Assembly (NCBI GenBank): GCA_011390465.1
Contig: JAABSH010000009.1
Coordinates: 1 to 64,000, forward strand
Source of the DNA: Desulfobacteraceae bacterium
GTDB taxonomy: Bacteria > Desulfobacterota > Desulfobacteria > Desulfobacterales > Desulfosalsimonadaceae
DNA: 64,000 bases
Direction: 5' to 3'
Shown: positions 2,138-27,809 of the stretch, piece by piece
How positions within the stretch are numbered: position 1 is the first letter of the stretch
Layout of the letters: each line of letters begins with the position of its first letter
Program-made: the position numbers and the translations under genes
Notes under the pieces: generated by a model
Told to the model about the DNA's origin: nothing
Database searches by the model: none
What the model saw: only the letters and a program-made list of their open reading frames with translations

Positions 2138-3331
2138 CTAATCAAACTTTTTCTTATTGTTGACAACCCATTCAGCGAGCTGACCAGATCGTTTCTGAAT
2201 TTCCACTCGTTCAGCGGGCTGCTTCTCTTTGGCGTGCTCGGTAAATACGTTTATCAGATCAAACATTGAGGCGTTGTCCCGATATTTGGAATTGAAGACT
2301 GCTTTTGACAGCTCTCCTGCAAAACAAAGTGGCAAGTAACCTATCGCCAGCTCTTCTCTTTTTAGTTTGTCCTCCGGGCTTAGTTTCCTGAAAATGAAGT
2401 CATTGAAAAAATTTCTGTGCTTATCAATAACGATGGATTTTGATGTCGGGATGATGTCAAAAATCATTTTGCTGAGGTCCAACTCAGCCAGCCTTTGCGG
2501 AGAAAATTCGATATCGCTGAGTTCCTTCACATACGTTGCTTTTTCACCCATTCCCGCGAGCACATCACCAAAAGCTTTATTTAATCGGCTCAAGAAATTC
2601 TTGGCTTTTCCAGAATGAATAACTCTTGCTCCATTTCGACCGGCAGGCAACACCAGTCCATTGGCACACACCAAGCGATGAAGGAAATAATCTATAGAAA
2701 CAGCGGCATCACCAACCATGCTGTTGCAAAATTCAAGACCTATTTCTGTTTTATCTTCAGAGATACCTCCCCGGCCGGAAACAGTTCCAGAAATGTGCGT
2801 GCTCGTAAGTCGAAGATGCAGCCTCGTGTTAATTGAATATGCCTCTTTTAAGGTCAGCTTTCCTGCAGAGGACAAATCATTTTCACCTATTACATTTTCA
2901 ATATCTCGCATGAATGAATTGTTGCTGTAGCCGACATAGCTACTCGAAACAATTCCACAGACTTTCCCATGTGATGGGTCGCCGCCTTTTTCATTGATCA
3001 CAAATTCACTATTGGAAAGCTGTGCTTTCGCATTATCTTGGCTGAGGAGATCGTTTAGTATTCTTGAGGCCAACTCACTTTCTTTTGTCATTTCAATTGC
3101 AAGCAGAGGAAATTTGAGTTTGTAGCAGAGCGATTTTAGTCCTTCTTTGGTGAAAGCAAGTTTGTATTCCGAGCTGCCGAAATATTTATCTTCCTGGAAT
3201 TTAGCACCATTCTTCAACAACCCCTGTATTGAGACTCGTGATGTGGATTCTTCTTCATCAGCGACCCACGCATACAGTTCGTTCCAGCCTGTAAACTCTT
3301 TTTCCGATGCCATTTCTGTTTGAAACATCAC
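2138..3331 (-). CDS. DUF932-like (phage/plasmid-like) protein
   Basis: 397 aa; FCNSMVGDAAVSIDYFLHRLVCANGLV matches the DUF932 pattern. Confidence 0.65.
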   Translation of the reverse strand: MMFQTEMASEKEFTGWNELYAWVADEEESTSRVSIQGLLKNGAKFQEDKYFGSSEYKLAFTKEGLKSLCYKLKFPLLAIEMTKESELASRILNDLLSQDNAKAQLSNSEFVINEKGGDPSHGKVCGIVSSSYVGYSNNSFMRDIENVIGENDLSSAGKLTLKEAYSINTRLHLRLTSTHISGTVSGRGGISEDKTEIGLEFCNSMVGDAAVSIDYFLHRLVCANGLVLPAGRNGARVIHSGKAKNFLSRLNKAFGDVLAGMGEKATYVKELSDIEFSPQRLAELDLSKMIFDIIPTSKSIVIDKHRNFFNDFIFRKLSPEDKLKREELAIGYLPLCFAGELSKAVFNSKYRDNASMFDLINVFTEHAKEKQPAERVEIQKRSGQLAEWVVNNKKKFD

Positions 3332-3339
3332 GCGCTCCT

Positions 3340-4911
3340 TTATTTGTCATCACCTGTTATTTGTTTTGCCCGGGCGGAATAATCGCCAACCTTATCAGCG
3401 CTATAGAGCCGCTGGAAATATTCGTTTGATCTACGACGATCGCCGATGATGTAGTAGTACTGGCCAAGATGGAAAAGGCTGAACAGATCAAACGCATCTA
3501 TTGCCAACGATTGGTTATAGAAACTGAGGGCAAGATGATCGTCTCCGTTTAATGCATGAGCCCATGCCAGCTTGTTGTAAACAACCAAGGCATCTGGTTT
3601 TTCATTTCTTACTTCTTCAAGAAGCTGGATTGCCTGGCGGTAATCACCGTCCAGCCCATATGCGATTGCAAGTTTGAATTTGGCATACGAACTCGCAGTT
3701 ATCTTAACCAGTGAAGTGTAAATCTGGATGGCTTTTTCGTAACGTTGATCATCCACATACAGAGAGGCAAGACGTTCTATGGTCTCAACTTTTTGGCGGT
3801 CTTCAACTGGGTATCCGCGCTCGTAGATCCCCATTAAACGTTCATAAGCAGCAATGGCTTTCTTTTTGTAGCCTACACGAATGCAAATACCGCCGAGCAT
3901 CCTTAGGTACTGAGGATGTTCATCGCTCCGATCAACTGCAGCTTCAGCGGCTTCCAAAGCACCCTGATGATCACCATCGGAAAGTTTTTTCTTGGCAAGT
4001 TCAAGGTAATAGAGCGGGCTTGATGAAGGAGGCTGAAACTCTTGTTTTGTGGTAACGCGAGAAGGCAATTCTACGATAACATTGCTGGCAGACAAAGAAT
4101 CTACACACCGGTCAACATCGGCTCGCAACTCACCAACACTCTGATATCTCTTTTCCGGCCGCCGAGCCATTGCTTTCAAAATTACCTGTTCAAGATCGGC
4201 TGGAATGTCTGTGTTGATTTCCCGAGGCTTTGCAATATTCAAACCGGTCAATAGTTGGTGTGGACTGGTGTAAGGGAGGGAGCCTGTGGTCATCTCATAT
4301 AACAAAACCCCAAGCGAATAAATATCCGAAACCTTACTGCGCTTCCCCTCGAGGGCGACTTCGGGAGCCATATAAGCTTCCGTTCCATGCCGTTTGGTCC
4401 AAACCCATGCATCCTCAAACCTTCTGCTGACGCCAAAGTCGGTTATTTTTGCTTTGTTGCTACCCTTTGCGATGAGAATATTTTCCGGCTTAAGGTCGTT
4501 ATGTGAGATGTTTCTTTGATGTACGGCAGCAAGTCCATCCAGTATGTTTACAAGCCACTCCAGCATCTGTTTGAAAGAGAGGTTCGACGCGTTATTGGAC
4601 CCCTGTAAAATTGCTGAAAGGCTAAAGCCATCAATGAATTCCATTTCAATGAAAAACAAATCGCTTATGTTGTGAAATGCGTAAACCTGTACAATGTTCG
4701 GATGGATGATTCCTTTGACGATATCTGCTTCTTTCCTTAGAATCTCTTCACCTTTTTCTTGGTCCTTCGGAATTTTGATGGCAACGTGTTTCCCGTCAGA
4801 TAAGCGTTCAGCCCTCCATACTTCACCGAAACTCCCTTTACCGACTTCTTCAATAAGTCGAAACCGGTCGCCAAGAAGCTCGTTTTTTTTAGTTCTAAAG
4901 AAAATGCCCAT
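3340..4911 (-). CDS. Serine/threonine protein kinase with C-terminal TPR repeats
   Basis: VGKGSFGEVW, VAIKIP, HNDLKPENILI, KITDFGVSR, GTEAYMAPE; TPR-like C-terminus. Confidence 0.93.
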   Translation of the reverse strand: MGIFFRTKKNELLGDRFRLIEEVGKGSFGEVWRAERLSDGKHVAIKIPKDQEKGEEILRKEADIVKGIIHPNIVQVYAFHNISDLFFIEMEFIDGFSLSAILQGSNNASNLSFKQMLEWLVNILDGLAAVHQRNISHNDLKPENILIAKGSNKAKITDFGVSRRFEDAWVWTKRHGTEAYMAPEVALEGKRSKVSDIYSLGVLLYEMTTGSLPYTSPHQLLTGLNIAKPREINTDIPADLEQVILKAMARRPEKRYQSVGELRADVDRCVDSLSASNVIVELPSRVTTKQEFQPPSSSPLYYLELAKKKLSDGDHQGALEAAEAAVDRSDEHPQYLRMLGGICIRVGYKKKAIAAYERLMGIYERGYPVEDRQKVETIERLASLYVDDQRYEKAIQIYTSLVKITASSYAKFKLAIAYGLDGDYRQAIQLLEEVRNEKPDALVVYNKLAWAHALNGDDHLALSFYNQSLAIDAFDLFSLFHLGQYYYIIGDRRRSNEYFQRLYSADKVGDYSARAKQITGDDK

Positions 4912-5528
4912 TAGTAATTTCCTCCAGATAAGTGCCGTTCATTACGCATATCCCGAAGGAATTCTCCAAACAAAAGATCCTGCGTATCTCCAGAGCTTTT
5001 CATGACGCATTTGATTACCATTAACGGTGTCATGGCTTTGGGTACCACTATCCCATTTCTCCTGAAGCTGGCTCCGTATGGGGCAACCACACCATCCATA
5101 CTTCTGGGCATGGAACCTGACCTAACCCAGTAGACAAGAACAGCCAATTCAATAGTCTCACTGAGAGCCGCTGTTATGGCCAGGTTCTCAACCTTCTGCT
5201 TGAGCTTCTTTTCATCCCCTTTTTCAAATCGTTCAAATTCAAAAGCGATCCTCGGTGTCAAATCCGATTTATCAAACCATACCGAGTCTGCACGAATTTC
5301 TCCGATGCCTTGAAATGATTCGTTAATACTCACCGGGCATTCCGTAATTGCTGAATACCCGGCTTTTTGTCCGCAGCTCGTCAGATAAGTCAAGAAGTGC
5401 GAATGAATCGTCACACCTCGGTCTGGGATTCCCGACTGCAAAAGCATAGGAAAGTTCTCTGTCATCTGAAAATTATCAGTGACGGCAGAAAGAACTGTTT
5501 CGCTTATGTTTATGCTTCTTTTCATCAA
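4911..5528 (-). CDS. PD-(D/E)XK-nuclease-like protein (uncharacterised)
   Basis: 205 aa; GEIRADSVWFDKSDLTPRIAFEFERFEKGDEKKLKQKVENL resembles a D-x(n)-ExE core; coupled to neighbours. Confidence 0.45.
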   Translation of the reverse strand: MMKRSINISETVLSAVTDNFQMTENFPMLLQSGIPDRGVTIHSHFLTYLTSCGQKAGYSAITECPVSINESFQGIGEIRADSVWFDKSDLTPRIAFEFERFEKGDEKKLKQKVENLAITAALSETIELAVLVYWVRSGSMPRSMDGVVAPYGASFRRNGIVVPKAMTPLMVIKCVMKSSGDTQDLLFGEFLRDMRNERHLSGGNY

Positions 5529-7219
5529 ATCTCCGGTTTACCCCAGCGTTCACATACCTTCGGCGACTCCCCTCCATGCACAAGGGCCTTTGTCCCAACC
5601 TTTACTACCAGCGGAGCGATAATTGCCCGGCCGCAAATCAATGCCTCACCTGTTGAAAGCGTCGGCAACTCGGCAAGGTCGGCAGCAGAGAAATAATCAG
5701 ATGTTTTTTGTATGAATCGTTGGTCATCAGGGTTTTTAATACGCATGGCCACAATCGTGTTGCACTGACTGGTTACATCTGAATCCAGTTTGCTGGGCCG
5801 CTGACTTACGATGGCAAACCCGACTCCAAACTTTCGACCTTCAGCAGCAATGCGCTTGATAATGTTCTTTGATATGCAAGGCTCACCATTCGGCGCGAAA
5901 TTGTGGCCTTCTTCATAGATGATAAAAGAGGGTCTTGTCGGACGGTTTTTGTCTCCTGCGGCTTTCATTAATTCACTCGATATCAGTGCAACGATGACCT
6001 GTCTTGCGGTGTTTGAGAGTCCTTGAAGATCCACAATACAAATGCGTCCGTAGGGTTCGTTGTCATCTCCGACCATTTTGTAAACATCGAAGGGGTCGCC
6101 TGCAGCACGGGTATAAAAGCTTTGTGCCTCATTAATCATCCGGCGTAACCGGATGGCGGCAATATTGGCACTTCCGCCTTTGAGGGCGCTGGCTTCACCC
6201 GGGCTTCCTGATTCAGCAACCCAATTTTTCAGGCGGTCAAGGTCGTCCAAAACAGAGAACAGCTCCTGAATATCCCGAGGCTCTTCAAAATTTTCCTTCC
6301 AATACCTCAGCGCCACATCGAGTACACGCTGCTGTGGCTCCGTGAGACCCGGTAACACACCTGAAAATTCATCCACATCGAAATGATCCAGCTGCAGGGC
6401 CAGGTTCTGATTCTTACCGGCATATTTTTCGGTAAAGCTTCTGAGTTGAGGCGTAAAGACAGTTATGCCAGCGCCCTTATCTTGAAGGGCTTGCAACCTT
6501 GTTTGGATTTCAACGAGCTTCTCCCGGTCCCTTACATCCTCCACGGAATCAAGCCGGTCATTGAAATTCAACGTTCCGCCTCGCAAGGCTTTCCCATATT
6601 CTCCATGGGGATCAAAGACCACAACTGAGGCGTTTAGCTGGGCGACAAGACGTTCAATAATTCGGCCAACGGTGTAACTTTTCCCTGAACCAGTCATAGC
6701 CAGCACGGCCAAGTGTTCGGTCACCAGCGTGTTGGCATCAAGATATACAGGGACGACATTCGATCCTTTTTCATACCCCACGAGATTGCCAAGGTGAATG
6801 CTGGTATCCTCTGAAAAATCATAAAACTTGGTCAAAAAATCATAATCGACACTGTAAACCTTAGTGCCCGGATTAAGAGGTCTGCGAGGAATTCTGATTT
6901 CACCGGTATAAGGATCTTTGTAGCCAACCAGCTCAATGGTCCCATACACTGTTTCTCCGGAAATTTTAGAGTGCGGCAGAAGCTCGACCTCACTAATCCC
7001 TTCACCAAGAGCCGGATTGAAAAGGATGCTGTTTCTGGACAGGGAAACAATCCGTCCCAGCACGTCCATATTCGGATCGCTTTCTCTTTCTTGGTGTGCA
7101 ATTCTGACGAACTCGCCGCGCCTTGCCGAAAAGCTGTTTCTGAGAGCAATCGTCAACTTATCCGGTTGCCCCGTGTTCCCAACCAATTTACCGATGAAAT
7201 TATCTTGATTATTTTTCAC
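5525..7219 (-). CDS. herA: HerA-like / DUF87 DNA-translocating ATPase
   Basis: Walker A AMTGSGKSYTVGRI, Walker B PSFIIYEEGHNFAP, QRPSKLD...QCNTIVAMRI typical of HerA. Confidence 0.9.
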   Translation of the reverse strand: MKNNQDNFIGKLVGNTGQPDKLTIALRNSFSARRGEFVRIAHQERESDPNMDVLGRIVSLSRNSILFNPALGEGISEVELLPHSKISGETVYGTIELVGYKDPYTGEIRIPRRPLNPGTKVYSVDYDFLTKFYDFSEDTSIHLGNLVGYEKGSNVVPVYLDANTLVTEHLAVLAMTGSGKSYTVGRIIERLVAQLNASVVVFDPHGEYGKALRGGTLNFNDRLDSVEDVRDREKLVEIQTRLQALQDKGAGITVFTPQLRSFTEKYAGKNQNLALQLDHFDVDEFSGVLPGLTEPQQRVLDVALRYWKENFEEPRDIQELFSVLDDLDRLKNWVAESGSPGEASALKGGSANIAAIRLRRMINEAQSFYTRAAGDPFDVYKMVGDDNEPYGRICIVDLQGLSNTARQVIVALISSELMKAAGDKNRPTRPSFIIYEEGHNFAPNGEPCISKNIIKRIAAEGRKFGVGFAIVSQRPSKLDSDVTSQCNTIVAMRIKNPDDQRFIQKTSDYFSAADLAELPTLSTGEALICGRAIIAPLVVKVGTKALVHGGESPKVCERWGKPEI

Positions 7220-8364
7220 TATTCTACCTCTTCCTGAATTGTGTCGATACCTTCAAGCCATGTCTGATCAACCTCTCTGTCTTTGAGCATTGCAAGGGTT
7301 GATTTCAAATAGCTGATTAGAACTTCCTTCGGCATACGAACGAGCTGTTCTGCAAACCACAGAGGAAGCGGTTTCATTTTAGGGTTATCATGGATGGTTA
7401 AGTACGAGATCAGCCCCGCAAGCCTATCGAGGCTCTCCGTGGTCCAGCTGTCGCGCTTGCCAATTGTTTCAACCTTCCAGATAGGAGTGCGAAGCCCAAC
7501 CTGAAGGTGAAATCCAACGAGGCCGTGCTCTGAAACAAGCTTTGGCTCAAAACGCTTCATATATTTGCTCAAGGACTCGTAATAGAACGCAGCAGTTCTT
7601 CGCCCCGCTTTTAGAGTCCCTTTCAGAAATCGCAGGATGCCAACTCTTCGAAGCTGCCCCCAATCCTCACGAATAAGATTCACAATCTTGTCATCAATGG
7701 CTTCTGGGCTTCCTGATTGCCCCTCTTCGCGAATGGCATTCAGGACGGCACTGTTCAAGTCGCGTTTGGTTTGCAAAGAGACAAGGAATGGCCCATCGGG
7801 GTTGTTCGGGTAAAAGTCATTCAGGTGACGCTGCCAAAAATCCTCCATCACATTCAGTAGGGCCTGCCAGTCTTCTTGAACATCCTCTTCTTCAAGAAAA
7901 ACACTTTGATCCGCCCGGGAAACCAGTAGAGGGATATCCACAAAAATGATGTCAGGTTTTGTATCTGAGCTCATCAAGTCAGAAAGAAGTCGATAAACGA
8001 GAATGAACTCTTTCCACACAAGACGCTCTGACGCCCCGAGAAAGTTCATATCGTTGATATCGACTCGGCTGTCCTGCAGACCTTCACTGACCTCATTATT
8101 GGCAACAACCAGATCATGCCGGAGAGCAGCAGCCCCATAGAGCAATCCACCCAAGGCAGGCATACTTTTACTTTTCGAAGAAATGCCCACGGCATAGACT
8201 TTCTCGTGCTTGCCTTGGGATATATTCCTGATCAGGCCACCGTCATGAAACAACGGCCCTTTCGAATCCACATAGCGCATCTTATTGGCCAATTTGCCAG
8301 CGGTGCCTGGTAGGCGCAGGCTCATGGCAGCTGTCAATGCGCGTGACATTTCAACGCTTTTCAT
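7219..8364 (-). CDS. NurA-domain-like nuclease
   Basis: PLFHDGGLIRN...KVYAVGISSKSKSM, IIFVDIPLLVSRADQS and FHLQVGLRTPIWKVE fit NurA motifs; directly coupled to HerA. Confidence 0.55.
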   Translation of the reverse strand: MKSVEMSRALTAAMSLRLPGTAGKLANKMRYVDSKGPLFHDGGLIRNISQGKHEKVYAVGISSKSKSMPALGGLLYGAAALRHDLVVANNEVSEGLQDSRVDINDMNFLGASERLVWKEFILVYRLLSDLMSSDTKPDIIFVDIPLLVSRADQSVFLEEEDVQEDWQALLNVMEDFWQRHLNDFYPNNPDGPFLVSLQTKRDLNSAVLNAIREEGQSGSPEAIDDKIVNLIREDWGQLRRVGILRFLKGTLKAGRRTAAFYYESLSKYMKRFEPKLVSEHGLVGFHLQVGLRTPIWKVETIGKRDSWTTESLDRLAGLISYLTIHDNPKMKPLPLWFAEQLVRMPKEVLISYLKSTLAMLKDREVDQTWLEGIDTIQEEVE

Positions 8365-9233
8365 GAATCGGCCTCCTCATCTTCAAGTATTTCCTTTATT
8401 TCTCGCGCATACGAGTAATGTCCGGCCTGATCAATGTATTCTTCGAGCTTGGACGTCCAATTTTCCTTTGTTGCGTTCAGATTAATTGAAAGTTGGTCTA
8501 AGGCCTGCAAGACAGTATCTGCGTCGCAATTGAGAGTGAAGAACCGGGACATAGCGGCTGATAGTTTGTTTGGGTCGTTGCTGCCATATGAAAAAGAGAG
8601 GATTGCCACAGAATGCAATACACTTTCATCCGGAGATTCAGCATCTTCAGTCGTTTCCGCATTGGCAAACGACTGCTTGTTTTCCCATGTCAGAAGCAGC
8701 TTAAGCAGTGATTCTCTGTCGGACTCATTGGTCATCCCACTATAGGAGAGCAACTTCAAGGTGGTTATAAAGACCGCTCCTGAAGTGTTCTTGGGCTGGT
8801 ATTTGAGCAGGACGGTGCCCTTGTTGTCGTCAACACCCATAACTCCTGAGTTCAGCGACGACTCAATCGCGCCATCCGACCAGATTTCATATTTGCTTTC
8901 CGCGTCCAGACCGTCAAAGCCTATTGGTTTGCAAAATGAAGATGCTTTGCGTTTTTTCACAATGATTGAAACCGGCGCGTCAATGGCATTGCCAATGTCG
9001 GTGTCGGTCGGCGGATTTATGATAATCAGACCTGTGCCGTTTTGATAATTGGTCCGCGCCAGTTTGCGCACAGTGCCTGTAAAGTCATCAATCCCCTTGG
9101 AGCCCAGAAATACGCATGGAAAACCTTTCATGCCGATAGCTTCATCAACAGATACGAATAGTATTTCGGCTGATTGCTCCAGTATTGATGACTCAAACAG
9201 ATCTTTCTGGATATCGAGTATTAAGGTTTTCAT
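8361..9233 (-). CDS. Hypothetical protein of the cluster
   Basis: 290-aa ORF with 4-bp overlaps to both neighbours. Confidence 0.7.
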   Translation of the reverse strand: MKTLILDIQKDLFESSILEQSAEILFVSVDEAIGMKGFPCVFLGSKGIDDFTGTVRKLARTNYQNGTGLIIINPPTDTDIGNAIDAPVSIIVKKRKASSFCKPIGFDGLDAESKYEIWSDGAIESSLNSGVMGVDDNKGTVLLKYQPKNTSGAVFITTLKLLSYSGMTNESDRESLLKLLLTWENKQSFANAETTEDAESPDESVLHSVAILSFSYGSNDPNKLSAAMSRFFTLNCDADTVLQALDQLSINLNATKENWTSKLEEYIDQAGHYSYAREIKEILEDEEADS

Positions 9234-13294: not shown

Positions 13295-13295
13295 T

Positions 13296-15670: not shown

Positions 15671-16800
15671 TTGTTATCCCCCAAGTGTTCCTCAATCATT
15701 TTGCGCTCTTTTTCTAATTCCAGCTTTAGCTCTTTTTCGCTTGGCAGATAAAGCATATATTTTGACGCGAAAATCTGTTTCCGCTCACTCAGTACCGAAT
15801 ATTTGGCAACGGCTTCATTTTTCTTTGTGCAGAGAACCAGTCCAATGGTAGGGTTGTCATCATCTGCTGTATACAAATCATCAAACATCCGGACATACCC
15901 ATCCATCTGCCCCACATCCTTGTAAGAAAGCTCCCCCATTTTGAGGTCGATCAGCAGATAGCATTTGATAATGCAGTTGTAGAACACCAGATCGATGTAG
16001 AGATCTGTATCATCAAAGCGCAGCCGTTTCTGTCTCCCGACAAAAGCAAACCCCTTTCCCAGTTCCAGAAGAAATTTTTGTAAATGGGTAATGATAGCCT
16101 GCTCCAATGTGGTTTCACGCAGGCTCGGAGAATCCGGCAACCCGAGGAATTCTAACACATAGGGTGATTTTAAAATTGTCTCGGGAGACCTGGGGTTCCC
16201 GGGCAGGCGTTCTCTGTCAGAAGCTGTCAGGCCAGCTTCGCCGCGGTTCGATATGATCCGCTCATAATAAGAAGAATGAATCTGTCTTTCCAGTTGCGCC
16301 TTGCTCCATCCACATTCAATGGCCTCTAACTCGTAAAATAAACGGGCTTTTCCGTCCGCTACGCGCATCAGGGCGCGGTAGTGGGACCAGGAAAGCTGCG
16401 ATGAAAAGCGCGTTGTCGGCTTTATATCTACAGGCACCAATTCGCCACCTGATGGGTGACCTTTTGTAATCAGGCCTGATTGGTCACCTGATGGGTGACC
16501 AATTTCAGGGAACCGGTCCTGGTAGACCTGATAAAATGTCCGAAAATATTTAAGATTGGTTAAAGAATAGCCGGAAGCATACCGTTTTGTTAATCGTTCG
16601 GACATATCTTCTAAAACCCGTTTCCCATATTCTGCCCGTTCCTCGCCTCCCTGTAATTCCTGCACGATCTCCCGCCCGATTAACCAATAGGCCACAACCA
16701 TGTTACTATTGACAGAACGGACAACATTGGATCGGGCTTCTTCAAGGATGCTGACAATCCGGTCGAAAAGGGAGTTTAATTTTTCAGGTACGTTATTCAT
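15667..16800 (-). CDS. yhcG: PDDEXK nuclease domain protein, YhcG/DUF1016 family
   Basis: VVAYWLIGREIVQELQGGEERAEYGKRVLEDMSERL... and DLYIDLVFYNCIIKCYLLIDLKMGEL are characteristic. Confidence 0.93.
   Translation of the reverse strand: MNNVPEKLNSLFDRIVSILEEARSNVVRSVNSNMVVAYWLIGREIVQELQGGEERAEYGKRVLEDMSERLTKRYASGYSLTNLKYFRTFYQVYQDRFPEIGHPSGDQSGLITKGHPSGGELVPVDIKPTTRFSSQLSWSHYRALMRVADGKARLFYELEAIECGWSKAQLERQIHSSYYERIISNRGEAGLTASDRERLPGNPRSPETILKSPYVLEFLGLPDSPSLRETTLEQAIITHLQKFLLELGKGFAFVGRQKRLRFDDTDLYIDLVFYNCIIKCYLLIDLKMGELSYKDVGQMDGYVRMFDDLYTADDDNPTIGLVLCTKKNEAVAKYSVLSERKQIFASKYMLYLPSEKELKLELEKERKMIEEHLGDNK
16446..16500. repeat. Clustered palindromes inside yhcG (CACCTGATGGGTGACC x2 around ATCAGGCCTGAT)
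   Basis: CACCTGATGGGTGACC at 16446-16461 and 16485-16500; ATCAGGCCTGAT palindrome at 16469-16480. Confidence 0.85.
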
Positions 16801-16839
16801 GGCTTTAGCTCCTATCTTCTCTTATCAAAGCTGCTTCAT

Positions 16840-17907
16840 TCATCCCGTCACCACCCATTGCATAAATTTTCTTTTCAAATCGTCTGTTTGTTTCCGTGTA
16901 AGATTTTTACCGGAGTAGGCTGAAACCTTGGTCTCGCGGCCGGAGTCCTTGAACTTTTTGTAGGTTGAGAACTCAAATGATTTGGCCGTCAACGCCTGTT
17001 CTTCAAAGCGGTATTCATACCGCTCGTTATGACCTATGAAGGCTCCGCAAGGATCGGTTGTCCAGTAACCCGGGTAACTCAACCGTTCCAAGGCACGGCG
17101 CATTTCAACGGCGGACTGATACCTGCTGGCGGGATCTACATGGACCGCCTTATTGATAACAGTTTTAAGGTTCCGGGGAACGAAGGGCTGGTAATCACTG
17201 GTCTGAACGACTTTTCCATCCTTCACCAGCTGATAGTAGTCACCCTGACCCAAGGCATTGAATTTGTCGCGGATGTGACCAATACCATTAAGCAAGCGGA
17301 ATGCGGTCAAACCCACCTGATAAATATCCGTCTGCACATTGATCTGATTGGAATTGAGCACTTCCGGAGCAATGTGCAGTTTGTATGCACTCCTTGGCTG
17401 AACCGGCTGCCCACTCGGTGAGTGACAAGTGATGCCATAATCGGTCAACACCCCTTGGTTGGCATCTCCGATAAGGATGTTTTTTGGCTTAATATCGTTG
17501 TGATAGAGGTTCAGTTCGTGCAGATATTCCAGTCCCCGCAGAATGTCGGCCATGAAGCGAATCACCTCAGGAAGCGGCATAAAATTCCCTGAATTGACCC
17601 CGGAGAGGATGGACCCGTTTGCATGGTAATCCATGGCGATAATGACAAGGTCGGTTCCGTTGTGCTGAACCACATCCGCATAGTGCATTTTCACCAGATT
17701 GGCATGATCCAAATGGTTCCCGATCCGAGCCTCCTGAAGGCGCTCATCAATCGCTACCCCTTGGGCCAGCACTTTTACTGCAACATCCCGGGAAATGGTC
17801 CGATCGTGGGCCAACCATACATCACCAAAGCCACCGCCCCCGATGGACTGTTGGAGGACATACTTATAAATGGTCTGCCCGGGATTGATCTGCACTCGCT
17901 GCTGCAT
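16840..17907 (-). CDS. Serine/threonine protein kinase
   Basis: SIGGGGFGDVWLAHD, DVAVKVL, LYHNDIKPKNILI, LTDYGI, APEVL. Confidence 0.92.
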   Translation of the reverse strand: MQQRVQINPGQTIYKYVLQQSIGGGGFGDVWLAHDRTISRDVAVKVLAQGVAIDERLQEARIGNHLDHANLVKMHYADVVQHNGTDLVIIAMDYHANGSILSGVNSGNFMPLPEVIRFMADILRGLEYLHELNLYHNDIKPKNILIGDANQGVLTDYGITCHSPSGQPVQPRSAYKLHIAPEVLNSNQINVQTDIYQVGLTAFRLLNGIGHIRDKFNALGQGDYYQLVKDGKVVQTSDYQPFVPRNLKTVINKAVHVDPASRYQSAVEMRRALERLSYPGYWTTDPCGAFIGHNERYEYRFEEQALTAKSFEFSTYKKFKDSGRETKVSAYSGKNLTRKQTDDLKRKFMQWVVTG

Positions 17908-18368
17908 TATTTATCCCTCCCGGTCCATGCGGCAGCCACGGCATCAGCCATTTGCGCATTCCAGTATTTATCTGAACGTCCCACATTGGCTTCGGCAAAT
18001 GCCTGGACTTTTTTTGAGCTCATGCCTTGCTGCATGTTTGCATATAGAAAGGTGTGGGCCGTTTTTCCGTTCTGAAGGGCGGACAGCATAACAACACCAT
18101 CCATGTGGGTTGAAAAACGGTTCGCCATCTTTTCTGTTCCGAACTGGTTCATCTTGATAGCGACTTTGGAAATATCGGGATACATCCTGTATAGCCGCTC
18201 AAGTTCCGAATAAAGCCATTGCAGCTTTTGAGGTATCTCCTGACGGTCTGCCGGAAAATCCAGTTTGTTCTCAGCGGCGGAATTAGCCAACGAGGCTGTC
18301 TGACCATCCCATTCAACAATGGCGTAGCGGACACAGGTTGAAGCGGTGCGTATCCCGAGTATCTGCAT
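17907..18368 (-). CDS. Small RNase H/RuvC-fold-like protein, catalytic acids degenerate
   Basis: 153 aa; MQILGIRTASTCVRYAIVEWDG resembles RuvC beta1 with D->R; VAIKMNQFG with E->K; C-terminal QMADAVAAAW resembles the last acidic motif. Confidence 0.45.
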   Translation of the reverse strand: MQILGIRTASTCVRYAIVEWDGQTASLANSAAENKLDFPADRQEIPQKLQWLYSELERLYRMYPDISKVAIKMNQFGTEKMANRFSTHMDGVVMLSALQNGKTAHTFLYANMQQGMSSKKVQAFAEANVGRSDKYWNAQMADAVAAAWTGRDK

Positions 18369-18370
18369 GA

Positions 18371-19840
18371 TTAAATGTCCTCCAGTTCTTTTTCGATATC
18401 CTCCATAGTCGGGGCTTTGAGTTTGCCAGACAGGATGGCGTCGGTGTCCAGCTTGCCTTCGATCAGGGCTTCGACATTGGATTTAGCTTCTACAACTAAT
18501 TGATCTGCAAATTTCTTATACAGAGAAGCTTTTTTACTGGCTTCAGAGATTTCTGCTATTAACTCTGGCGAAACGACTGGGACAGGGATTGTTTCAATAT
18601 CATCCTCTGAAATAACAGGATATGTGGTAACCGTGCATCTTTGACCTATAAACAGTTTTGCAGTGTAAGTTCGCAAATATTCATGAATAAATCTGGAGTG
18701 TGATTTTTCATGAGTTTGAATTTTCGCAAGAAAAACACTACAAAAAGCATTATCAATATTATCTTCAACATACGCCACAGCACCTCTGTCTGGACGACGT
18801 GTTGACATTAGTATGTCACTTTTCGTTATAGTTCGTTGGGCATTGTTTGGTGTGTTTTCTGGAGAACAGTTACGCCCACCAGATATTATGCCGTTAAAAT
18901 TGTCTATGTCACTGATTTCAATATAAAATATATCTCCTTTTGGCCTTTCTTTTTGTCGGCTGCATACCCCGTATTCACCCAGTGGAACAAGGGGGACACC
19001 ATTGGTATCAAGATCTATCAGCAGATCTTTATATATCTGACGGTAAAAATTTGAGTTCAACCATTCAGTAGTAAGGTCATCTGGTGGAACAAAGCGTGTT
19101 TGCGCATTATTAGAATGAAATTTTCGTTCATGAAGAATTGATTCAAATAACTCGTTGACAATATTTCTGTTTTTTGTTGCCTCTTCACGGCATTTTTCTG
19201 CGAGTTCGACTTTTTTTCCTATGTATTTCTGTATTCTTTGATTAGGAAGAGGAATGATAAAAGCCTTAATCGTATCAAGATCATTATATAAAGCTCCAGT
19301 ATTGGAAGATCCTCGCCTCTTTTGAAGCAAAAATGCTCCTGACGTCATCACTGCGAGCAAATATTTACTGTTTACTTTGCTTTCCTTTGCTCTAATGATG
19401 AAAACGCTACCATTCGCTATTGCCTTATCATCAGTTTCTGGGAACATGGCAACTGAGTCAGGCCTGTCTATTGATGCCCCCTTAACAAGCATCAATATAT
19501 CGCCAGGGGTTATTTGCGCTTTTTTAAACTGATCGTAATAATGTTCAGGAACTCTTACCGCCTCTGACAAGTCAATAGCCATAGACTGAAGGTCAGTCCC
19601 TCTTATCAAAGCAACACCCTCAGTTGCATAATCTACAGAGTCAGGAAGCGAACCGTAATTTCCTTTGTTATAGAGCGATCCCAGCCGGGAATAAGGAACA
19701 CTCCCATTCAGCAAATTGCTTTCATTCTTCAAATAGGTTGGCTGGAAGCAACCTGCATCCATCCGGCGCTCAATCATGGAGGCCGATATAATTGTGGCAG
19801 CAGGTTTTTCTGACAATATTTTGAAATTGTTCATACTCAT
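18371..19840 (-). CDS. Type I restriction specificity subunit (HsdS-like)
   Basis: Two TRD-like halves; motifs such as YNDLDTIKAFIIPLPNQRIQKYI and PVISEDDIETIPVPVVSPELI. Confidence 0.88.
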   Translation of the reverse strand: MSMNNFKILSEKPAATIISASMIERRMDAGCFQPTYLKNESNLLNGSVPYSRLGSLYNKGNYGSLPDSVDYATEGVALIRGTDLQSMAIDLSEAVRVPEHYYDQFKKAQITPGDILMLVKGASIDRPDSVAMFPETDDKAIANGSVFIIRAKESKVNSKYLLAVMTSGAFLLQKRRGSSNTGALYNDLDTIKAFIIPLPNQRIQKYIGKKVELAEKCREEATKNRNIVNELFESILHERKFHSNNAQTRFVPPDDLTTEWLNSNFYRQIYKDLLIDLDTNGVPLVPLGEYGVCSRQKERPKGDIFYIEISDIDNFNGIISGGRNCSPENTPNNAQRTITKSDILMSTRRPDRGAVAYVEDNIDNAFCSVFLAKIQTHEKSHSRFIHEYLRTYTAKLFIGQRCTVTTYPVISEDDIETIPVPVVSPELIAEISEASKKASLYKKFADQLVVEAKSNVEALIEGKLDTDAILSGKLKAPTMEDIEKELEDI

Positions 19841-21831
19841 AACTGCTCCCCACGAGTGTAAATATCCGCAATCGTTACCAAGTCGTTTCCGGCCGGATCT
19901 GGAATTTCTGTTTTTCCTTTTTTTAGATACCCCACATGCTCAGCCACGCCCATGAACACAGGTCCTTGCTTTTCCGATGCATGTTTCTTTTTTTCCAGGT
20001 AAATGAAGCTGGTTTTTGCACCAGTACCCGAGATAGCAAAGGTCTCCGTTGGCAGGCTGACAACCGCTTTCAGGATAGCCTTACCTCCTAAAAATTCGCC
20101 TGTCTCATCATCTTTCGATCCCATGATGTATTCACGGATATAGGCATCACCCGAGTTGCAGAGAATGCCGTCCGGAACGACAATCAAGAGCCGTCCCCCG
20201 GGTTTCAGTAATTGCAGGTTGCGGTCCACAAAAAGCGCTGCTGGGTCAGCTTTATCAATCGCCTTTTTCTTGCTCCGATCACCGGCTTTCCATTTCCATC
20301 CAAGCTCAAGGCCAAGCTCTTCCTTGCGCATTTTTGCCATCCCAGATTTGTCGTCATACTTGCCCGAACCAAAAGGCGGATTGGTCAGGATCAGATCGAA
20401 TTTGCCCACCAGCTTGTCCACGTGGGTATCCGTAATGGAGTCGTCGACCTTTAATAACTGGCTGTGGTCCTCTCCATAGAGCAGCATGTTGATGCGGGCC
20501 TTCTGGATGCTGCCTTCAGCCTGATCCGCCCCAAAGAAGCTGTGGCGCTTCATCTGGCTGAGCCATGCCAGCTTGTCTTCGTCGCTGTGACCCACATGCT
20601 TGTCATCAAGAATGCGTTTTTTGATCTCGCGCAGTGCGCCCACCAGAAAACGGCCGGTACCACAACAGATATCCCCGCATAGAAAGGCGGGCAGATCTTT
20701 TTCATCTTTCGAGGGACTCCATCGTTCCTGCTGATCCTTGTCACCCCGGCGAGCCCAGAGCTCGGCATCGGTGATGTCATGGAAAACCATGTGGCTCATG
20801 CACTCAACCACCTGTGAAGGGGTCAGGTAGGTGGCCAAACCTTCGTTGCTGGCATACTTACCGCGAAGGAAGACATCAAAGGCCCAGCCAAGAAGGTCTT
20901 CGTGGATGAGATGCGCCCTCATCATCCGGGCCTGTTCTCCATTACCCACCAGCTCCTTGTCCGGCACCGACAAACGGATAGGCTGACCATCGCGGTCGCG
21001 CAGATCCATGGAATCGATTGCCATGGCGAGGATATCGGTGTTTTCAAGTTTCAGCGGCTCGTCATAAGCAAAAATGGTGTGAACTTCACCGGTTATGTCT
21101 TTGGCATTGTACTGCGGCAGATTGTTGATTTCCCTGAAGGCATCTTTCAGTTCGATGACAGCCTTCTTTCCATTCTTTTTTACATACTCGGAAGAATATA
21201 TCTCGGAGAACAATTTGCCTTTACCGGCACCGTCCTTGATCTTGTAGCGAGGCGATTTTTCAAGATGAATGCGCAGGAACAGGAGTTTCCCCAGTTCATC
21301 AATGGCTGCGTTGGTCGGCTTAACGCCGCCCCGGGAGTAGATGGCATCATGCAACTGGTCGAATTTACGCTGGATCGCCCGGAAGTCTCCACGGTGATAC
21401 TCTGCGGAAAGATCCTGAAGCAGACGGGAACGGGAATCGGAAATCGGCTTGGCAATCTCTCGCCATAAATCCTTGCGCGGCAGGTCGGAAATCTGGGCGT
21501 CTTTTTCCAGATCAAAAACAAAATGATTGTCGCCATCCCATACCCAGACAAAGCGGAACGGCTTGCCTTCATCCGCACCCAGCCCGGCTTTGAACTTGGC
21601 GTCATCCTGAATGGAAGGACGGGCGGCATCGCCGGGATCTGCTGCCGCAAAGAGAATCACCGGCTCGTCACCATCCATCGCCACCAGATCCGCAGTGGCG
21701 TCCATACTGCCGTCACCAAAGGGATCGAAAAGCTGAAAATCCTCGATAAGTTTTTCGTAACCCAGTTCGGCAAGTTGCTCCCGGGCCTGTCCCCGAAGTT
21801 TGCCCGGTGCATTTTCTTTTTTCTTAGCCAT
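19837..21831 (-). CDS. N6-adenine DNA methyltransferase (HsdM-like)
   Basis: Motif I GDICCGTGRFLVGAL, motif IV FDLILTNPPFGSGKYD, PGGRLLIVVPDGIL. Confidence 0.95.
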   Translation of the reverse strand: MAKKKENAPGKLRGQAREQLAELGYEKLIEDFQLFDPFGDGSMDATADLVAMDGDEPVILFAAADPGDAARPSIQDDAKFKAGLGADEGKPFRFVWVWDGDNHFVFDLEKDAQISDLPRKDLWREIAKPISDSRSRLLQDLSAEYHRGDFRAIQRKFDQLHDAIYSRGGVKPTNAAIDELGKLLFLRIHLEKSPRYKIKDGAGKGKLFSEIYSSEYVKKNGKKAVIELKDAFREINNLPQYNAKDITGEVHTIFAYDEPLKLENTDILAMAIDSMDLRDRDGQPIRLSVPDKELVGNGEQARMMRAHLIHEDLLGWAFDVFLRGKYASNEGLATYLTPSQVVECMSHMVFHDITDAELWARRGDKDQQERWSPSKDEKDLPAFLCGDICCGTGRFLVGALREIKKRILDDKHVGHSDEDKLAWLSQMKRHSFFGADQAEGSIQKARINMLLYGEDHSQLLKVDDSITDTHVDKLVGKFDLILTNPPFGSGKYDDKSGMAKMRKEELGLELGWKWKAGDRSKKKAIDKADPAALFVDRNLQLLKPGGRLLIVVPDGILCNSGDAYIREYIMGSKDDETGEFLGGKAILKAVVSLPTETFAISGTGAKTSFIYLEKKKHASEKQGPVFMGVAEHVGYLKKGKTEIPDPAGNDLVTIADIYTRGEQL

Positions 21832-21833
21832 AA

Positions 21834-22298
21834 TTATTTATCCTCCTGCCGGTTGGGCCGGTTAAAAATATTCGTATTCATTGTTGTAAACTGCTCCACA
21901 AGAATCTGTTTAACTTTTGGTGCGTCCAGTCCAGTGGTTCTGGTTACCTCCATCACCACATTGGCAATCGGAGCTCCGGGTTTTCCCAGTGTTTTGAAAA
22001 ATTGCAGCGCCGCATCGTGAACTATTTCCGCATCAGACATTCCGCTGCCGCGTGTGGTCCATTTGGAGCTGGCCGGCCAGGGAGCTTCGTCTTCTTTCAC
22101 CTTAAAACTTCCGTAAGGTTCAGCAGAAGAAGAGGTTTCCTTGTCGATGCGTTCAAACTTCGGGTTCAACCGCAGCAACAACAGGGCACGATCGGCACCA
22201 CCGTACTGATTCAGGTCGGGTATAGACGCCGCAATGATCTCTGGTGTGGCGGCACCCTCGCGAAGTAAGTATTCATACATCTGGTTCCCAATGCTCAT
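21834..22298 (-). CDS. Hypothetical protein, possible winged-helix N-terminus
   Basis: 154-aa ORF coupled between the two M/S pairs. Confidence 0.65.
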   Translation of the reverse strand: MSIGNQMYEYLLREGAATPEIIAASIPDLNQYGGADRALLLLRLNPKFERIDKETSSSAEPYGSFKVKEDEAPWPASSKWTTRGSGMSDAEIVHDAALQFFKTLGKPGAPIANVVMEVTRTTGLDAPKVKQILVEQFTTMNTNIFNRPNRQEDK

Positions 22299-23662
22299 TC
22301 TAACTCCTCCCTCCTAACTTCTATCTCCTTCCTTAAAAACTGCTCGGCAAACTCCAATACATGGGCTTTTGCGGTCAAGGCTTCACGCCTTCTCTCGAAG
22401 GCCCGGGCGACACGACTGTCAAAATCTTCCCGCCAGATCACCGACAATTTGGGAACCAGCAGCGAATCCAGATCCTTTTTGCTGACAAAACGCTGCACGG
22501 CCCCGGTAGCAAGGCTGTTCAATTGCGCCCGCACAATGGGGTGAGTCATGGCAATAGTGAAATACCTTGGCGTTTCAATGAAGCGTAAAGCGGTAAACGT
22601 GGCGCTTCCAAGAATCCTGCAACCTTCGGCCGCCGTCTTTTCATCCAGATAGGCCACTTGCTCTCCGCTGCCTGTTGTGCAGATCAACACGTCTCCGGGA
22701 TTTAGCGGCTGTCTCATTCGGGGTGACAGATCGGATAATCGGCAGGTCTCCACGCTTTCCACCATCATGGTGTTTTCGTTGATATGCTCGGCTTTCACTG
22801 CACAAACCTGTTCATCCTCGCCGATCCCTTTCAAGGTTGATGGAACCGGTTTAGCCACCTGAAGAAGCGGGGTAACACTGCCACTCTCCAGCAACTGTTT
22901 CCGGAGCACCTCATTTGCGCAAAACGCAACATCCCATCGGCCAATCAATTCCGTTTTCCGGATCTTGAACTGGCGCATGGTTACCTGCATCTGTGTCTTG
23001 CGATTGATCTCCGCGTGGACAGCCCGTACAATCTGAGACAGTTCTGTTTCCGACTCCTGGCTCAGGCGTGCTGCATCGTCATAAGCCTTTTTGATTTTGT
23101 TTTGCAGTTCTCGGCCCGGAAGCGGGATGGGAATTCCGGCAATATCTTTAAGGCGCAATCGTCTTAACGCTGTGGCAGACCGCCTGTAGGCGAGATCTTT
23201 CAGAATCCTGCCCATGGTGGGTGCAGACAGTATGGCCGCCAGATATTCGGGTACAACGGCCGACTTCGGGCGCATGACCGTGATCTCGGAAGACACGGTA
23301 ATATCGTCAAACCCCTCGGGCATAACCGCTGCCCTGAAAGGTTCGGCAGCCTGAGTGAACAGCACATCCTGAGGCTTTACCGCCGTCCACTTGGCGGCCT
23401 TATCTATTGACGCATATTTCAACCCGGAAAAATGGATATCGCATGCATCGAGATTGCTGAGACGCAGCATCGGGATACCTGCTTCACATGAGGTCAATCG
23501 TGATCCGTCGGCAAAATAATCAAGCAGGTCCCCCAACTTGATGAAGCTGTCGTAGTTACCGTTTGTAATGGTCTTTACTGTCTTCTCACCAAGGTAAAAC
23601 CGAGGGTCGAGGCGGTTGCCTTTTTTGCGAAACTTTTTCAGCTGGATCACGGTACTTCTCAT
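22295..23662 (-). CDS. Second type I specificity subunit-like protein (HsdS-like)
   Basis: RRLRLKDIAGIPIPLPGRELQNKIKKAYDDAARL and FVSKKDLDSLLVPKLS match HsdS TRD-helix junctions. Confidence 0.82.
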   Translation of the reverse strand: MRSTVIQLKKFRKKGNRLDPRFYLGEKTVKTITNGNYDSFIKLGDLLDYFADGSRLTSCEAGIPMLRLSNLDACDIHFSGLKYASIDKAAKWTAVKPQDVLFTQAAEPFRAAVMPEGFDDITVSSEITVMRPKSAVVPEYLAAILSAPTMGRILKDLAYRRSATALRRLRLKDIAGIPIPLPGRELQNKIKKAYDDAARLSQESETELSQIVRAVHAEINRKTQMQVTMRQFKIRKTELIGRWDVAFCANEVLRKQLLESGSVTPLLQVAKPVPSTLKGIGEDEQVCAVKAEHINENTMMVESVETCRLSDLSPRMRQPLNPGDVLICTTGSGEQVAYLDEKTAAEGCRILGSATFTALRFIETPRYFTIAMTHPIVRAQLNSLATGAVQRFVSKKDLDSLLVPKLSVIWREDFDSRVARAFERRREALTAKAHVLEFAEQFLRKEIEVRREELE

Positions 23663-24987
23663 GCGCGATCCTCCGGATTAAATGCCGCTTTAATGGTTTC
23701 AATCGTGGCAGCAATTACATCGCTGTCGAAGTCTTCCTGCTGTAATTCGGTCATTGAGATCGAGTAATCAGCGGGAATCTGTTTGGCCTTTTTCATGAAC
23801 AAAATAGAGCATCGAATGCCTGTGCCGGAAAAACAGAATCCGGGCGGCAAGCTGACGATGCCAAGAACCTGCGCGGAATCCAACAGCCAATCCCGGAAAG
23901 CCTTGTGGCTTGCTCCGGATAAAATCCCTTCCGGCAATACGACTGCAATTAGACCATCCGGCTTACACTGATCAATGACCTTGATTAAATAAAGGTATTC
24001 AGCGGGATATTTCTTTGACGCTGGATTACCTTTAAAAAAGGGACTGGTTAATGCGGCATCCTTTTTCAATTGTATTGATCTGCCGAATGGGGGGATCAAT
24101 ACAACGGCATCCTTTTTCTTGGCTGGTTTACTTTCAAGATAGCCATCATCGATGAAGGAGGCTTTGGGATACAAAGCCTGCAACAGGGATAGAAGCTCCT
24201 GATTCCCATTCTCCAGAACGACTTCACCATTGCCCGAACCGGACAGAATTGAAAACTGAGCGCCTACAGCAGATGTAACAAGCGCTATTGAGTTTGCGCG
24301 TTCACCCATAGACTGAAAAACCGGAGACAGGGCCAACGGCAATCCTTGTATGCATTTTTTATCATCGCTTGCTCGTGCCACCCAATCGGTCAACCGGGCT
24401 GACTCTTCGGGTGTCGCTGGCTTCAGTCTAAAGCCAGCAAGGACGGCACATAACTTCAAAACGCCTTCAGAGTTAATATCTGCATCTTTCAGTTTGCCTT
24501 TGATGCTCGAAATCAAATCAGAACACTCATCAACCGTTCCAGAGATAGAGCACGCCCACGCATCCTCTTTTCCTGCCTCTTCATCAGCAATTCGGGCAAC
24601 CAGAAGATTCGACGCAACAGCATCGATAGCCTCCCGTTTTTTCACGCTTTGCCGCAGAAGGGTCGAGAGATATTCAAAAACATCCTGCGATGGAAATAGC
24701 CGTGCCTTAACAGGTCTCAAAGCGCGAACGGGATGCAGCCCGCCTGCCTTTGGGGGTGCTTCATAGAACGACAGCGTCGAGCCGCCTTCAGCCACAACAA
24801 AGGATACGCCCTCGTTAGAAAGCAAAGACAGGTATCGATCAGAGACAGAGCCACGCTTCGGAGACACGACAACACCCCGCTTTCCGGCATACTTAAACTC
24901 CGCATCAATAGACAGGCGACCCACGCTCGCATTATCCAGCGGGGTAACTTCAATGCCTCTTGCCTTTATGTATTCTTGAGCTTTCAT
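23659..24987 (-). CDS. HsdM-like N6-methylase homologue with degenerate motif IV
   Basis: KKDAVVLIPPFGRSIQ in place of NPPF; CKPDGLIAVVLPEGIL...FSGTGIRCSILFMKK typical HsdM C-terminal half. Confidence 0.8.
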   Translation of the reverse strand: MKAQEYIKARGIEVTPLDNASVGRLSIDAEFKYAGKRGVVVSPKRGSVSDRYLSLLSNEGVSFVVAEGGSTLSFYEAPPKAGGLHPVRALRPVKARLFPSQDVFEYLSTLLRQSVKKREAIDAVASNLLVARIADEEAGKEDAWACSISGTVDECSDLISSIKGKLKDADINSEGVLKLCAVLAGFRLKPATPEESARLTDWVARASDDKKCIQGLPLALSPVFQSMGERANSIALVTSAVGAQFSILSGSGNGEVVLENGNQELLSLLQALYPKASFIDDGYLESKPAKKKDAVVLIPPFGRSIQLKKDAALTSPFFKGNPASKKYPAEYLYLIKVIDQCKPDGLIAVVLPEGILSGASHKAFRDWLLDSAQVLGIVSLPPGFCFSGTGIRCSILFMKKAKQIPADYSISMTELQQEDFDSDVIAATIETIKAAFNPEDRA

Positions 24988-25027
24988 ATAATCTCCGTGT
25001 CACATACTCACTTGATCATTTTTCAAC

Positions 25028-25056
25028 ACAATAAACCACGAAAATCATATTGTCAA
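25028..25056 (-). promoter_or_regulatory. Putative sigma70 promoter of the 17-gene cluster
   Basis: Minus strand TTGACA (25056-25051), 17-bp spacer, TATTGT (25033-25028), about 40 bp upstream of the first ATG. Confidence 0.6.
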
Positions 25057-26710: not shown

Positions 26711-26743
26711 GATAGGATGGGGATACTCTTTCTATGAAATTTT

Positions 26744-27808: not shown

Positions 27809-27809
27809 T

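What the first reader, a model, noticed from the sequence alone, without database searches (positions are those of the whole stretch)
2138..24987. Candidate extended MADS-like anti-phage supersystem: 17 translationally coupled genes
Sequence shows 17 same-strand genes with almost no gaps, many with 1- or 4-bp start/stop overlaps. They include two Ser/Thr kinases, HerA plus NurA-like, a ~1354-aa P-loop ATPase, YhcG nuclease, a PD-(D/E)XK-like protein, two HsdM/HsdS-type pairs and several orphan families. No HsdR and no PglZ are present, so it is neither a standard type I R-M nor BREX. From memory, the methylation-associated defence system (MADS) combines methylase, kinase, ATPase and nuclease genes in eight genes; this locus has that composition but appears about twice as large. 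Calling it one system is inference.
Basis: partly seen in the sequence, partly recalled or inferred. Interest (0 to 1): 0.9.

Follow-up and report, generated by a model that had tools for sequence, protein, structure and literature searches.

The report
Conserved thirteen-gene methylation-guided HerA defence operon
A tightly packed block of 17 bacterial genes contains 13 genes that keep the same order in bacteria from three phyla; it looks like a previously unnamed, horizontally moving anti-virus machine that marks the host's own DNA and attacks unmarked DNA, with one swappable slot for extra weapons.

Summary
Seventeen minus-strand ORFs fill 2138-24987, with no gap above 39 nt and 11 of 16 junctions overlapping by 1 or 4 bp. 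A genome scan found the block elsewhere. Thirteen genes (g1-g5, g9-g16) keep identical order and strand in 12 of 12 complete loci from two Desulfobacterota, nine Actinomycetota and one gammaproteobacterium. DNA similarity to the Desulfatitalea copy begins and ends at 2129 and 25124, so it moves as a unit.

The other genes are accessory. A slot between g5 and g9 holds RuvC-like+kinase, YhcG, or a PARIS AriA/AriB-like pair; DUF932 is optional. The g4/g5 pair is an intact N6-adenine methyltransferase with hypervariable specificity: g5 is 25-28% identical where neighbouring genes are mostly above 90%. The g1/g2 pair lacks the catalytic Asn in 13/13 copies, but its specificity subunit is conserved. 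A six-gene module (g10-g15: large ATPase, HerA, PD-(D/E)XK-like nuclease, three orphans) occurs without g1-g5, g9 and g16 in Chloroflexota.

It is not an enlarged MADS: mad1, mad3, mad4 and mad7 have no counterpart among the 17. No PADLOC system, BREX, DISARM, Dnd or type I R-M matches. Novelty rests on PADLOC 2023 and an open-access library; no defence phenotype was tested.

The parts
23659..24987 (-). g1: HsdM-like protein (442 aa), catalytically dead: motif IV NPPF replaced by [IV]PPxG in 13/13 homologues
   Evidence: Pfam N6_Mtase 1.9e-16; motif table and alignment; core gene in 12/12 loci
22295..23662 (-). g2: HsdS-like specificity subunit with conserved sequence (92-96% within groups, 47-48% between phyla)
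   Evidence: PADLOC Specificity_I 1.3e-21; identities
21834..22298 (-). g3: 154-aa orphan, core
   Evidence: no family match; syntenic in 12/12
19837..21831 (-). g4: HsdM, intact N6-adenine methyltransferase (DICCGTG, NPPF in 13/13)
   Evidence: PADLOC MTase_I 9.3e-118, Pfam N6_Mtase 9.2e-23; motifs
18371..19840 (-). g5: HsdS with hypervariable target-recognition regions (25-28% identity between loci whose other core genes are mostly >90%); C-terminal end conserved
17907..18368 (-). g6: 153-aa protein with weak RuvC match; slot gene
   Evidence: NCBIfam RuvC 1.7e-4; 98% in Desulfatitalea; 152-aa protein at the same place in Actinomycetota, homology not demonstrated
16840..17907 (-). g7: Ser/Thr protein kinase; slot gene
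   Evidence: Pfam Pkinase 7.3e-36; HxDxKPxN and D[YF]G; absent in G453 and G458
15667..16800 (-). g8: YhcG/DUF1016 PD-(D/E)XK nuclease (PADLOC PDC-S02); slot gene
   Evidence: only here and in G453
14459..15670 (-). g9: 403-aa orphan, core; resembles the C-terminal part of the EVE-domain protein found beside it in Actinomycetota and Gammaproteobacteria
13296..14462 (-). g10: 388-aa orphan, first gene of the g10-g15 effector module
9230..13294 (-). g11: 1354-aa P-loop NTPase (Walker A GDWGLGKT and Walker B I[IV]VDE in 13/13)
8361..9233 (-). g12: 290-aa orphan, core
   Evidence: weak homologue in the Chloroflexota module
7219..8364 (-). g13: 381-aa orphan next to HerA; NurA resemblance not confirmed
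5525..7219 (-). g14: HerA hexameric DNA translocase ATPase (564 aa), 85-87% identical between phyla
   Evidence: Pfam DUF87 2.9e-39; PDB HerA matches
4911..5525 (-). g15: PD-(D/E)XK-like nuclease (D80 / E96-x-[E/D]98), probable nuclease partner of HerA
   Evidence: motif invariance incl. Chloroflexota homologue; AlphaFold2 and Foldseek
3340..4911 (-). g16: Ser/Thr protein kinase with TPR repeats, core
   Evidence: Pfam Pkinase 1.1e-48 and TPR; present in 12/12
2138..3331 (-). g17: DUF932 protein, accessory (only here and in Desulfatitalea)
   Evidence: Pfam 1.9e-8
24988..25124 (-). conserved leader upstream of g1 with a sigma-70-like promoter match (TTGACA-17-TATTGT at 25056-25028); similarity to the Desulfatitalea copy ends at 25124

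Best explanation
The locus encodes one mobile anti-invader system with a 13-gene core and one exchangeable slot. Shown by sequence: the conserved core, the slot, an intact MTase with hypervariable specificity subunit, a dead MTase with conserved specificity subunit, and a separable g10-g15 module. Inferred mechanism: (1) g4/g5 methylates adenines at a locus-specific sequence and so marks self DNA; swapping the g5 recognition regions changes the mark. (2) g1/g2 is a non-methylating docking complex that binds a constant target. (3) On DNA lacking the g4/g5 mark, the large NTPase g11 with adaptors g9, g10, g12 and g13 loads the HerA ring (g14), which translocates the DNA and feeds it to the PD-(D/E)XK nuclease g15. 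(4) The TPR kinase g16 controls the switch. (5) Slot genes (RuvC-like+kinase, YhcG, AriA/B-like) act as backup or cell-killing effectors.
For: Thirteen genes in identical order and strand in 12/12 complete loci from three phyla. Nucleotide similarity to the Desulfatitalea copy bounded at 2129-25124, and system proteins mostly at 80-99% where a flanking host gene (fused methylmalonyl-CoA mutase) is 67-69%: transfer as a unit. g4 motifs intact 13/13; g1 motif IV Asn absent 13/13. g5 25-28% identical in the Desulfobacterota trio and 28/37% (min/mean) within Actinomycetota, while g2 is 92-96%; DNA similarity breaks exactly over g5. g10-g15 without g1-g5, g9 and g16 in Chloroflexota G1496. HerA, kinase and Walker motifs intact. 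REase-like fold for g15. Slot swaps including AriA/AriB-like genes. EVE domain (PF01878, 1.4e-9) in an Actinomycetota copy, a domain class linked in the literature to modified-base reading (PMC7641849). HerA/FtsK 'capture' systems are proposed to bring invader DNA to nucleases (PMC10853773).
Against: No experimental evidence of phage protection or methylation. g9, g10, g12 and g13 have no assigned fold, so steps 2-4 are inference. The g15 fold assignment is weak in statistics (best E 0.012). The relatives were retrieved by an exact Walker A pattern of g11, which biases the sample to close relatives; the nine Actinomycetota copies are closely related to each other (80-98% over core genes other than g5) and are not nine independent observations.
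Confidence: 0.6

Rival explanations
1. It is a divergent or enlarged MADS (methylation-associated defence system).
For: Same classes of parts: N6-adenine MTase, HsdS-like subunit, Ser/Thr kinase, HerA-type ATPase; the alternative slot ATPase resembles mad3 (1.1e-16); g16's best PADLOC model is mad6 (3.1e-65).
Against: mad1, mad3, mad4 and mad7 are not found among the 17 (mad7 also not in the genome). Against two fetched MADS-like loci only generic domains align; g9-g13 and g15 have no counterpart. Kinase and HerA are separate short proteins here but sit in ~1400- and ~1800-aa proteins there.
Confidence: 0.12
2. It is a defence island: a type I-like R-M remnant plus an unrelated HerA module, kinases and YhcG that happen to sit together.
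For: The g10-g15 module occurs without g1-g5, g9 and g16 in Chloroflexota; g6, g7, g8 and g17 come and go.
Against: g1-g5 and g9-g16 are in identical order in 12/12 complete loci across three phyla with translational-coupling junctions.
Confidence: 0.15
3. It belongs to the HerA/FtsK 'capture' or BREX-related capture systems already outlined by Rakesh, Aravind and Krishnan, and is a member with an added methylation module.
For: Those systems combine HerA/FtsK, a large P-loop or STAND NTPase, wHTH proteins, REase and sometimes inactive methylase domains (PMC10853773, PMC12839542); g11 homologues give weak AAA_22/nSTAND3 matches.
Against: No PglZ, BrxA/BrxB/BrxC or DndH model hits the core proteins apart from HerA (DndH 1.1e-4 to g14 only); the passages read describe no locus with two HsdM/HsdS pairs plus TPR kinase. 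Their supplementary neighbourhood tables could not be read here.
Confidence: 0.13

Closest known systems
MADS (methylation-associated defence system; Maestri et al. 2024)
   Same: N6-adenine MTase, HsdS-like subunit, Ser/Thr kinase and HerA-type ATPase; an AAA ATPase (mad3) resembles one of the exchangeable slot genes
   Different: 13-gene core against eight genes; mad1/3/4/7 not found among the 17; kinase and HerA in separate short proteins; extra dead MTase/HsdS pair; orphans g3, g9, g10, g11, g12, g13 and nuclease g15 with no MADS counterpart
HerA/FtsK capture systems and DndFGH (PMC10853773)
   Same: HerA-type translocase with a large NTPase and a restriction-endonuclease-fold protein; DndH contains an inactive methylase domain, as g1 is here
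   Different: no DndF/DndG; separate HerA; modification by a type I-like N6 MTase, not phosphorothioation; two kinases
BREX / BREX-related and BRC systems (PMC12839542)
   Same: many-gene modification-based defence with a large P-loop ATPase; kinases occur in type 2 (PglW)
   Different: no PglZ, BrxC/PglY, BrxX/PglX, BrxL or BrxA/B model match among the 17 proteins
Type I restriction-modification
   Same: HsdM + HsdS with variable target-recognition regions
   Different: no HsdR; second, catalytically dead HsdM with a conserved HsdS; restriction presumably by HerA + PD-(D/E)XK protein
PARIS (AriA/AriB)
   Same: in two relatives (G453, G458) the slot between g5 and g9 carries an AriA-like AAA ATPase and a protein matching the AriB half of AriAB
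   Different: absent from the window's own copy; there the slot holds RuvC-like + kinase + YhcG

Membership tests
MADS | presence of the mad1-mad8 protein families | tested here: not met
   only mad2, mad5, mad6 and mad8 models hit; mad2, mad5, mad8 weaker than generic families; mad1, mad3, mad4, mad7 not found in the 17 proteins and mad7 not in the genome
MADS | homology of system-specific genes to actual MADS loci | tested here: not met
   two mad7-positive loci fetched; blastp and profile-profile comparison align only MTase, HsdS, kinase, HerA and slot AAA; mad1 not delimited in those loci
Type I restriction-modification | HsdM and HsdS | tested here: met
   g4 and g5
Type I restriction-modification | HsdR motor-nuclease | tested here: not met
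   no HsdR model hit among the 17 proteins
BREX | PglZ and BrxC/PglY | tested here: not met
   no PADLOC match among the 17 proteins
DISARM | DrmA helicase with DrmB | tested here: not met
   no PADLOC match
Dnd/Ssp phosphorothioation systems | DndACDE or SspABCD, DndFGH | tested here: not met
   only DndH 1.1e-4 to HerA g14
HerA/FtsK capture systems | HerA/FtsK ATPase with an NTPase and an REase-fold nuclease in one operon | tested here: inconclusive
   HerA and a P-loop NTPase present; g15 REase fold at E 0.012; Orc/Cdc6 identity of g11 not established (weak AAA_22 0.044)
Anti-phage defence system (general) | protects cells from phage or plasmids | not testable with these tools
   requires plaque and transformation assays
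Modification-based self recognition | active DNA methyltransferase that marks host DNA | tested here: inconclusive
   catalytic motifs intact in 13/13; methylome not available

The most novel reading that the evidence does not exclude
A distinct, unnamed type of modification-based immunity: a 13-gene core in which an active methyltransferase with swappable specificity marks self, a conserved catalytically dead methyltransferase/specificity pair acts as a docking or reading complex, and a separable six-gene NTPase-HerA-nuclease module destroys DNA, with one slot that accepts effectors from other defence systems (PARIS-like, YhcG, RuvC-like+kinase).
Probability: 0.55. Interest if true: 0.85.

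Novelty: new variant of a known kind. Interest (0 to 1): 0.77.

Why it matters
It is a very large, strictly ordered defence-type operon shared by three phyla yet rare (1 of 395 genomes sampled from its own phylum; 4 of 347 in one Actinomycetota order), and no PADLOC system (2023) matches it. It separates self-marking (hypervariable g5) from a second specificity complex that has lost catalysis but kept its sequence, which makes a direct question testable: what does a dead methyltransferase do in immunity? The exchangeable slot shows other defence genes being plugged into a fixed scaffold, and the six-gene HerA module gives a minimal unit for biochemistry.

Tried and rejected
Extended MADS: rejected after PADLOC, a genome-wide mad7 search and comparison with fetched MADS-like loci. 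NurA identity of g13: not supported; no Pfam or PDB profile match, and the AlphaFold2 model failed, pLDDT 34. tblastn in plasmids with g11, g13 and g10, megablast in E. coli genomes, and viral-contig scans gave nothing. PDB profile searches with g13, g15 and g10 gave nothing usable. Own genus and family: no second copy. Four of the 17 pattern hits (G461-G464) are unrelated ATPases. ARMADA/YprA systems: that paper mentions neither HerA nor HsdM. Homology of g6 to the 152-aa Actinomycetota protein at the same position: not demonstrated.
Full report
Observation. Seventeen minus-strand ORFs run from 24987 to 2138. Numbered in direction of transcription they are g1-g17. Coding sequence is essentially continuous; the largest gap is 39 nt, in front of g8, and 11 of 16 junctions overlap by 1 or 4 bp. 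Domain searches confirm HsdM-like g1 and g4, HsdS-like g2 and g5, kinases g7 and g16 (g16 with TPR), YhcG g8, HerA g14 and DUF932 g17. g3, g9, g10, g11, g12, g13 and g15 match no family at normal thresholds. g6 has a weak RuvC match (1.7e-4).

Relatives. The g11 protein is absent from 59 close relatives and 394 other genomes of the phylum, from plasmids and from viral contigs. A degenerate pattern of its Walker A region, scanned over 84,980 species genomes, gave 17 loci, 13 of them true relatives. Full loci were fetched for 12; the Anaerolineae one is a 4.5-kb contig with g10-g11 only.

One system. In all 12 complete loci (Desulfatitalea alkaliphila, a Desulfobacteraceae MAG, nine Actinomycetota, one gammaproteobacterial MAG) g1-g2-g3-g4-g5-[slot]-g9-g10-g11-g12-g13-g14-g15-g16 occur in the same order and strand. 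Identities to the window in the non-Desulfobacterota loci run from 85-87% (HerA) through 72-76% (g4), 66-69% (g13), 58-60% (g11), 55-56% (g15), 47-48% (g2), 43-45% (g10), 36-39% (g9), 32-36% (g1) and 30-33% (g12) to 24-30% (g5). The nine Actinomycetota copies are close to each other, so independent lineages number about three to four. DNA similarity between window and Desulfatitalea copies is confined to 2129-25124, while the flanking fused methylmalonyl-CoA mutase is only 67-69% identical between the hosts: horizontal transfer as a unit, including about 137 bp of leader with a TTGACA-17-TATTGT promoter-like site.

Exchangeable parts. Between g5 and g9 the window has g6-g7-g8 and Desulfatitalea g6-g7. 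Actinomycetota have a 152-aa protein plus a kinase. G453 has YhcG plus an AAA ATPase and a 277-aa protein; G458 has the AAA ATPase and a 281-aa protein without kinase. The AAA proteins match PtuA and AriA models and the companions match the AriB half of AriAB (about 1e-6), so PARIS-like genes are plugged into the slot. Nine Actinomycetota or gammaproteobacterial loci show an EVE-domain protein ORF between g9 and g10 (EVE 1.4e-9, DUF7669 1.7e-12 in the one scanned); its C-terminal part resembles g9 (hhalign probability 70%, E 3.9e-5). g17 is only in the window and Desulfatitalea.

Two unlike methyltransferase pairs. g4 keeps motif I DICCGTG and motif IV NPPF in 13/13. g1 has [IV]PPxG in 13/13, without the Asn. 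g5 is 25-28% identical in the Desulfobacterota trio, where most other core genes are above 90% (exceptions g3 72-82%, g9 80-91%, g12 84-92%), and averages 37% within Actinomycetota; its last ~25 residues are conserved, and DNA similarity breaks precisely over the gene. g2 is 92-96% identical in the same comparisons. This is the pattern of a swappable self-mark (g4/g5) beside a constant, non-catalytic complex (g1/g2). The role of g1/g2 is inference.

Effector module. In Chloroflexota G1496, g10-g11-g12-g13-g14-g15 homologues are adjacent and ordered with none of g1-g5, g9 or g16 recognised (g14 729 bits, g13 220, g11 139, g10 64, g15 54, g12 12.5), downstream of a 1612-aa protein with Sigma70_r4-like and RNA-pol-alpha-CTD-like matches and a 547-aa protein. 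g11 keeps Walker A and B in all 13 and HerA its Walker motifs. g15 keeps D80 and E96-x-[E/D]98, also in the Chloroflexota homologue, and its model (pLDDT 70) matches mostly restriction endonucleases (BstEII, PspGI, OkrAI, EcoRV, SfiI; best E 0.012). The g13 model failed.

Comparison with known systems. PADLOC finds no known system. For MADS, a mad7 search of 398 Pseudomonadota genomes gave two strong loci; their order is MTase, AAA, ~218-aa protein, HsdS, ~1380-1407-aa kinase protein, mad7, ~1800-aa HerA-ending protein. All-against-all profile comparison aligns g4/mad2, g5/mad5, g16 and g7/mad6, g14/C-terminal mad8 and slot AAA/mad3 (plus the paralogous g1/mad2 and g2/mad5) only. The locus works like MADS in outline but fails membership. 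No PglZ, BrxC, HsdR or DrmA model hits the 17 proteins. The nearest published concepts are HerA/FtsK capture systems and DndFGH with an inactive methylase domain (PMC10853773) and BREX-related capture systems (PMC12839542); the passages read describe no locus like this. Their supplementary files could not be read, so priority is not settled.

Mechanism and limits. Proposed: g4/g5 marks self; g1/g2 docks on a constant target; unmarked DNA is loaded by g11 and its adaptors into HerA and cut by g15; g16 gates; slot proteins are backups. Shown: synteny, transfer, motif states, g5 variability, slot swaps, module separability. Inferred: every functional step. The sample of relatives is biased to close relatives by the exact-pattern search. 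Prevalence is low: 1/201 in one Actinomycetota family, 4/347 in one order, 1/301 Chloroflexota with the divergent module. No name match was found in nine full-text searches of an open-access library.

Noticed in passing
L037:13857-15784 (+) and L030:652-2570 (-): AriA-like AAA ATPase and AriB-like companion (PARIS-like) inserted in the slot between g5 and g9 of two relatives; in one of them without any kinase.
   Followed up: partly
L039:13885-16152 (+) and equivalents: EVE + DUF7669 protein (~755 aa) between g9 and g10 in most Actinomycetota copies and the gammaproteobacterial copy, whose C-terminal part resembles g9.
   Followed up: partly
L060:10019-14857 (-) and L060:8237-9880 (-): 1612-aa protein with Sigma70_r4-like and RNA-pol-alpha-CTD-like matches, and a 547-aa orphan, directly upstream of the minimal six-gene HerA module in Chloroflexota.
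   Followed up: partly
L033:8930-9679 (+): Extra orphan gene (~249 aa) between g2 and g3 in Actinomycetota copies, no Pfam match.
   Followed up: no
L021:2767-5355 (+): Upstream of the Desulfatitalea copy, ORFs that by eye resemble an amidoligase, a class II glutamine amidotransferase and a gamma-glutamylcyclotransferase-like gene; possibly a mobile cluster (read from the sequence only).
   Followed up: no
window 25910-28571 (-): Two TPR-repeat proteins and a 253-aa protein beside the system, outside the region shared with relatives.
   Followed up: no
window 40212-41663 (-): Sulfotransferase-family gene in a local low-G+C patch (0.41).
   Followed up: no
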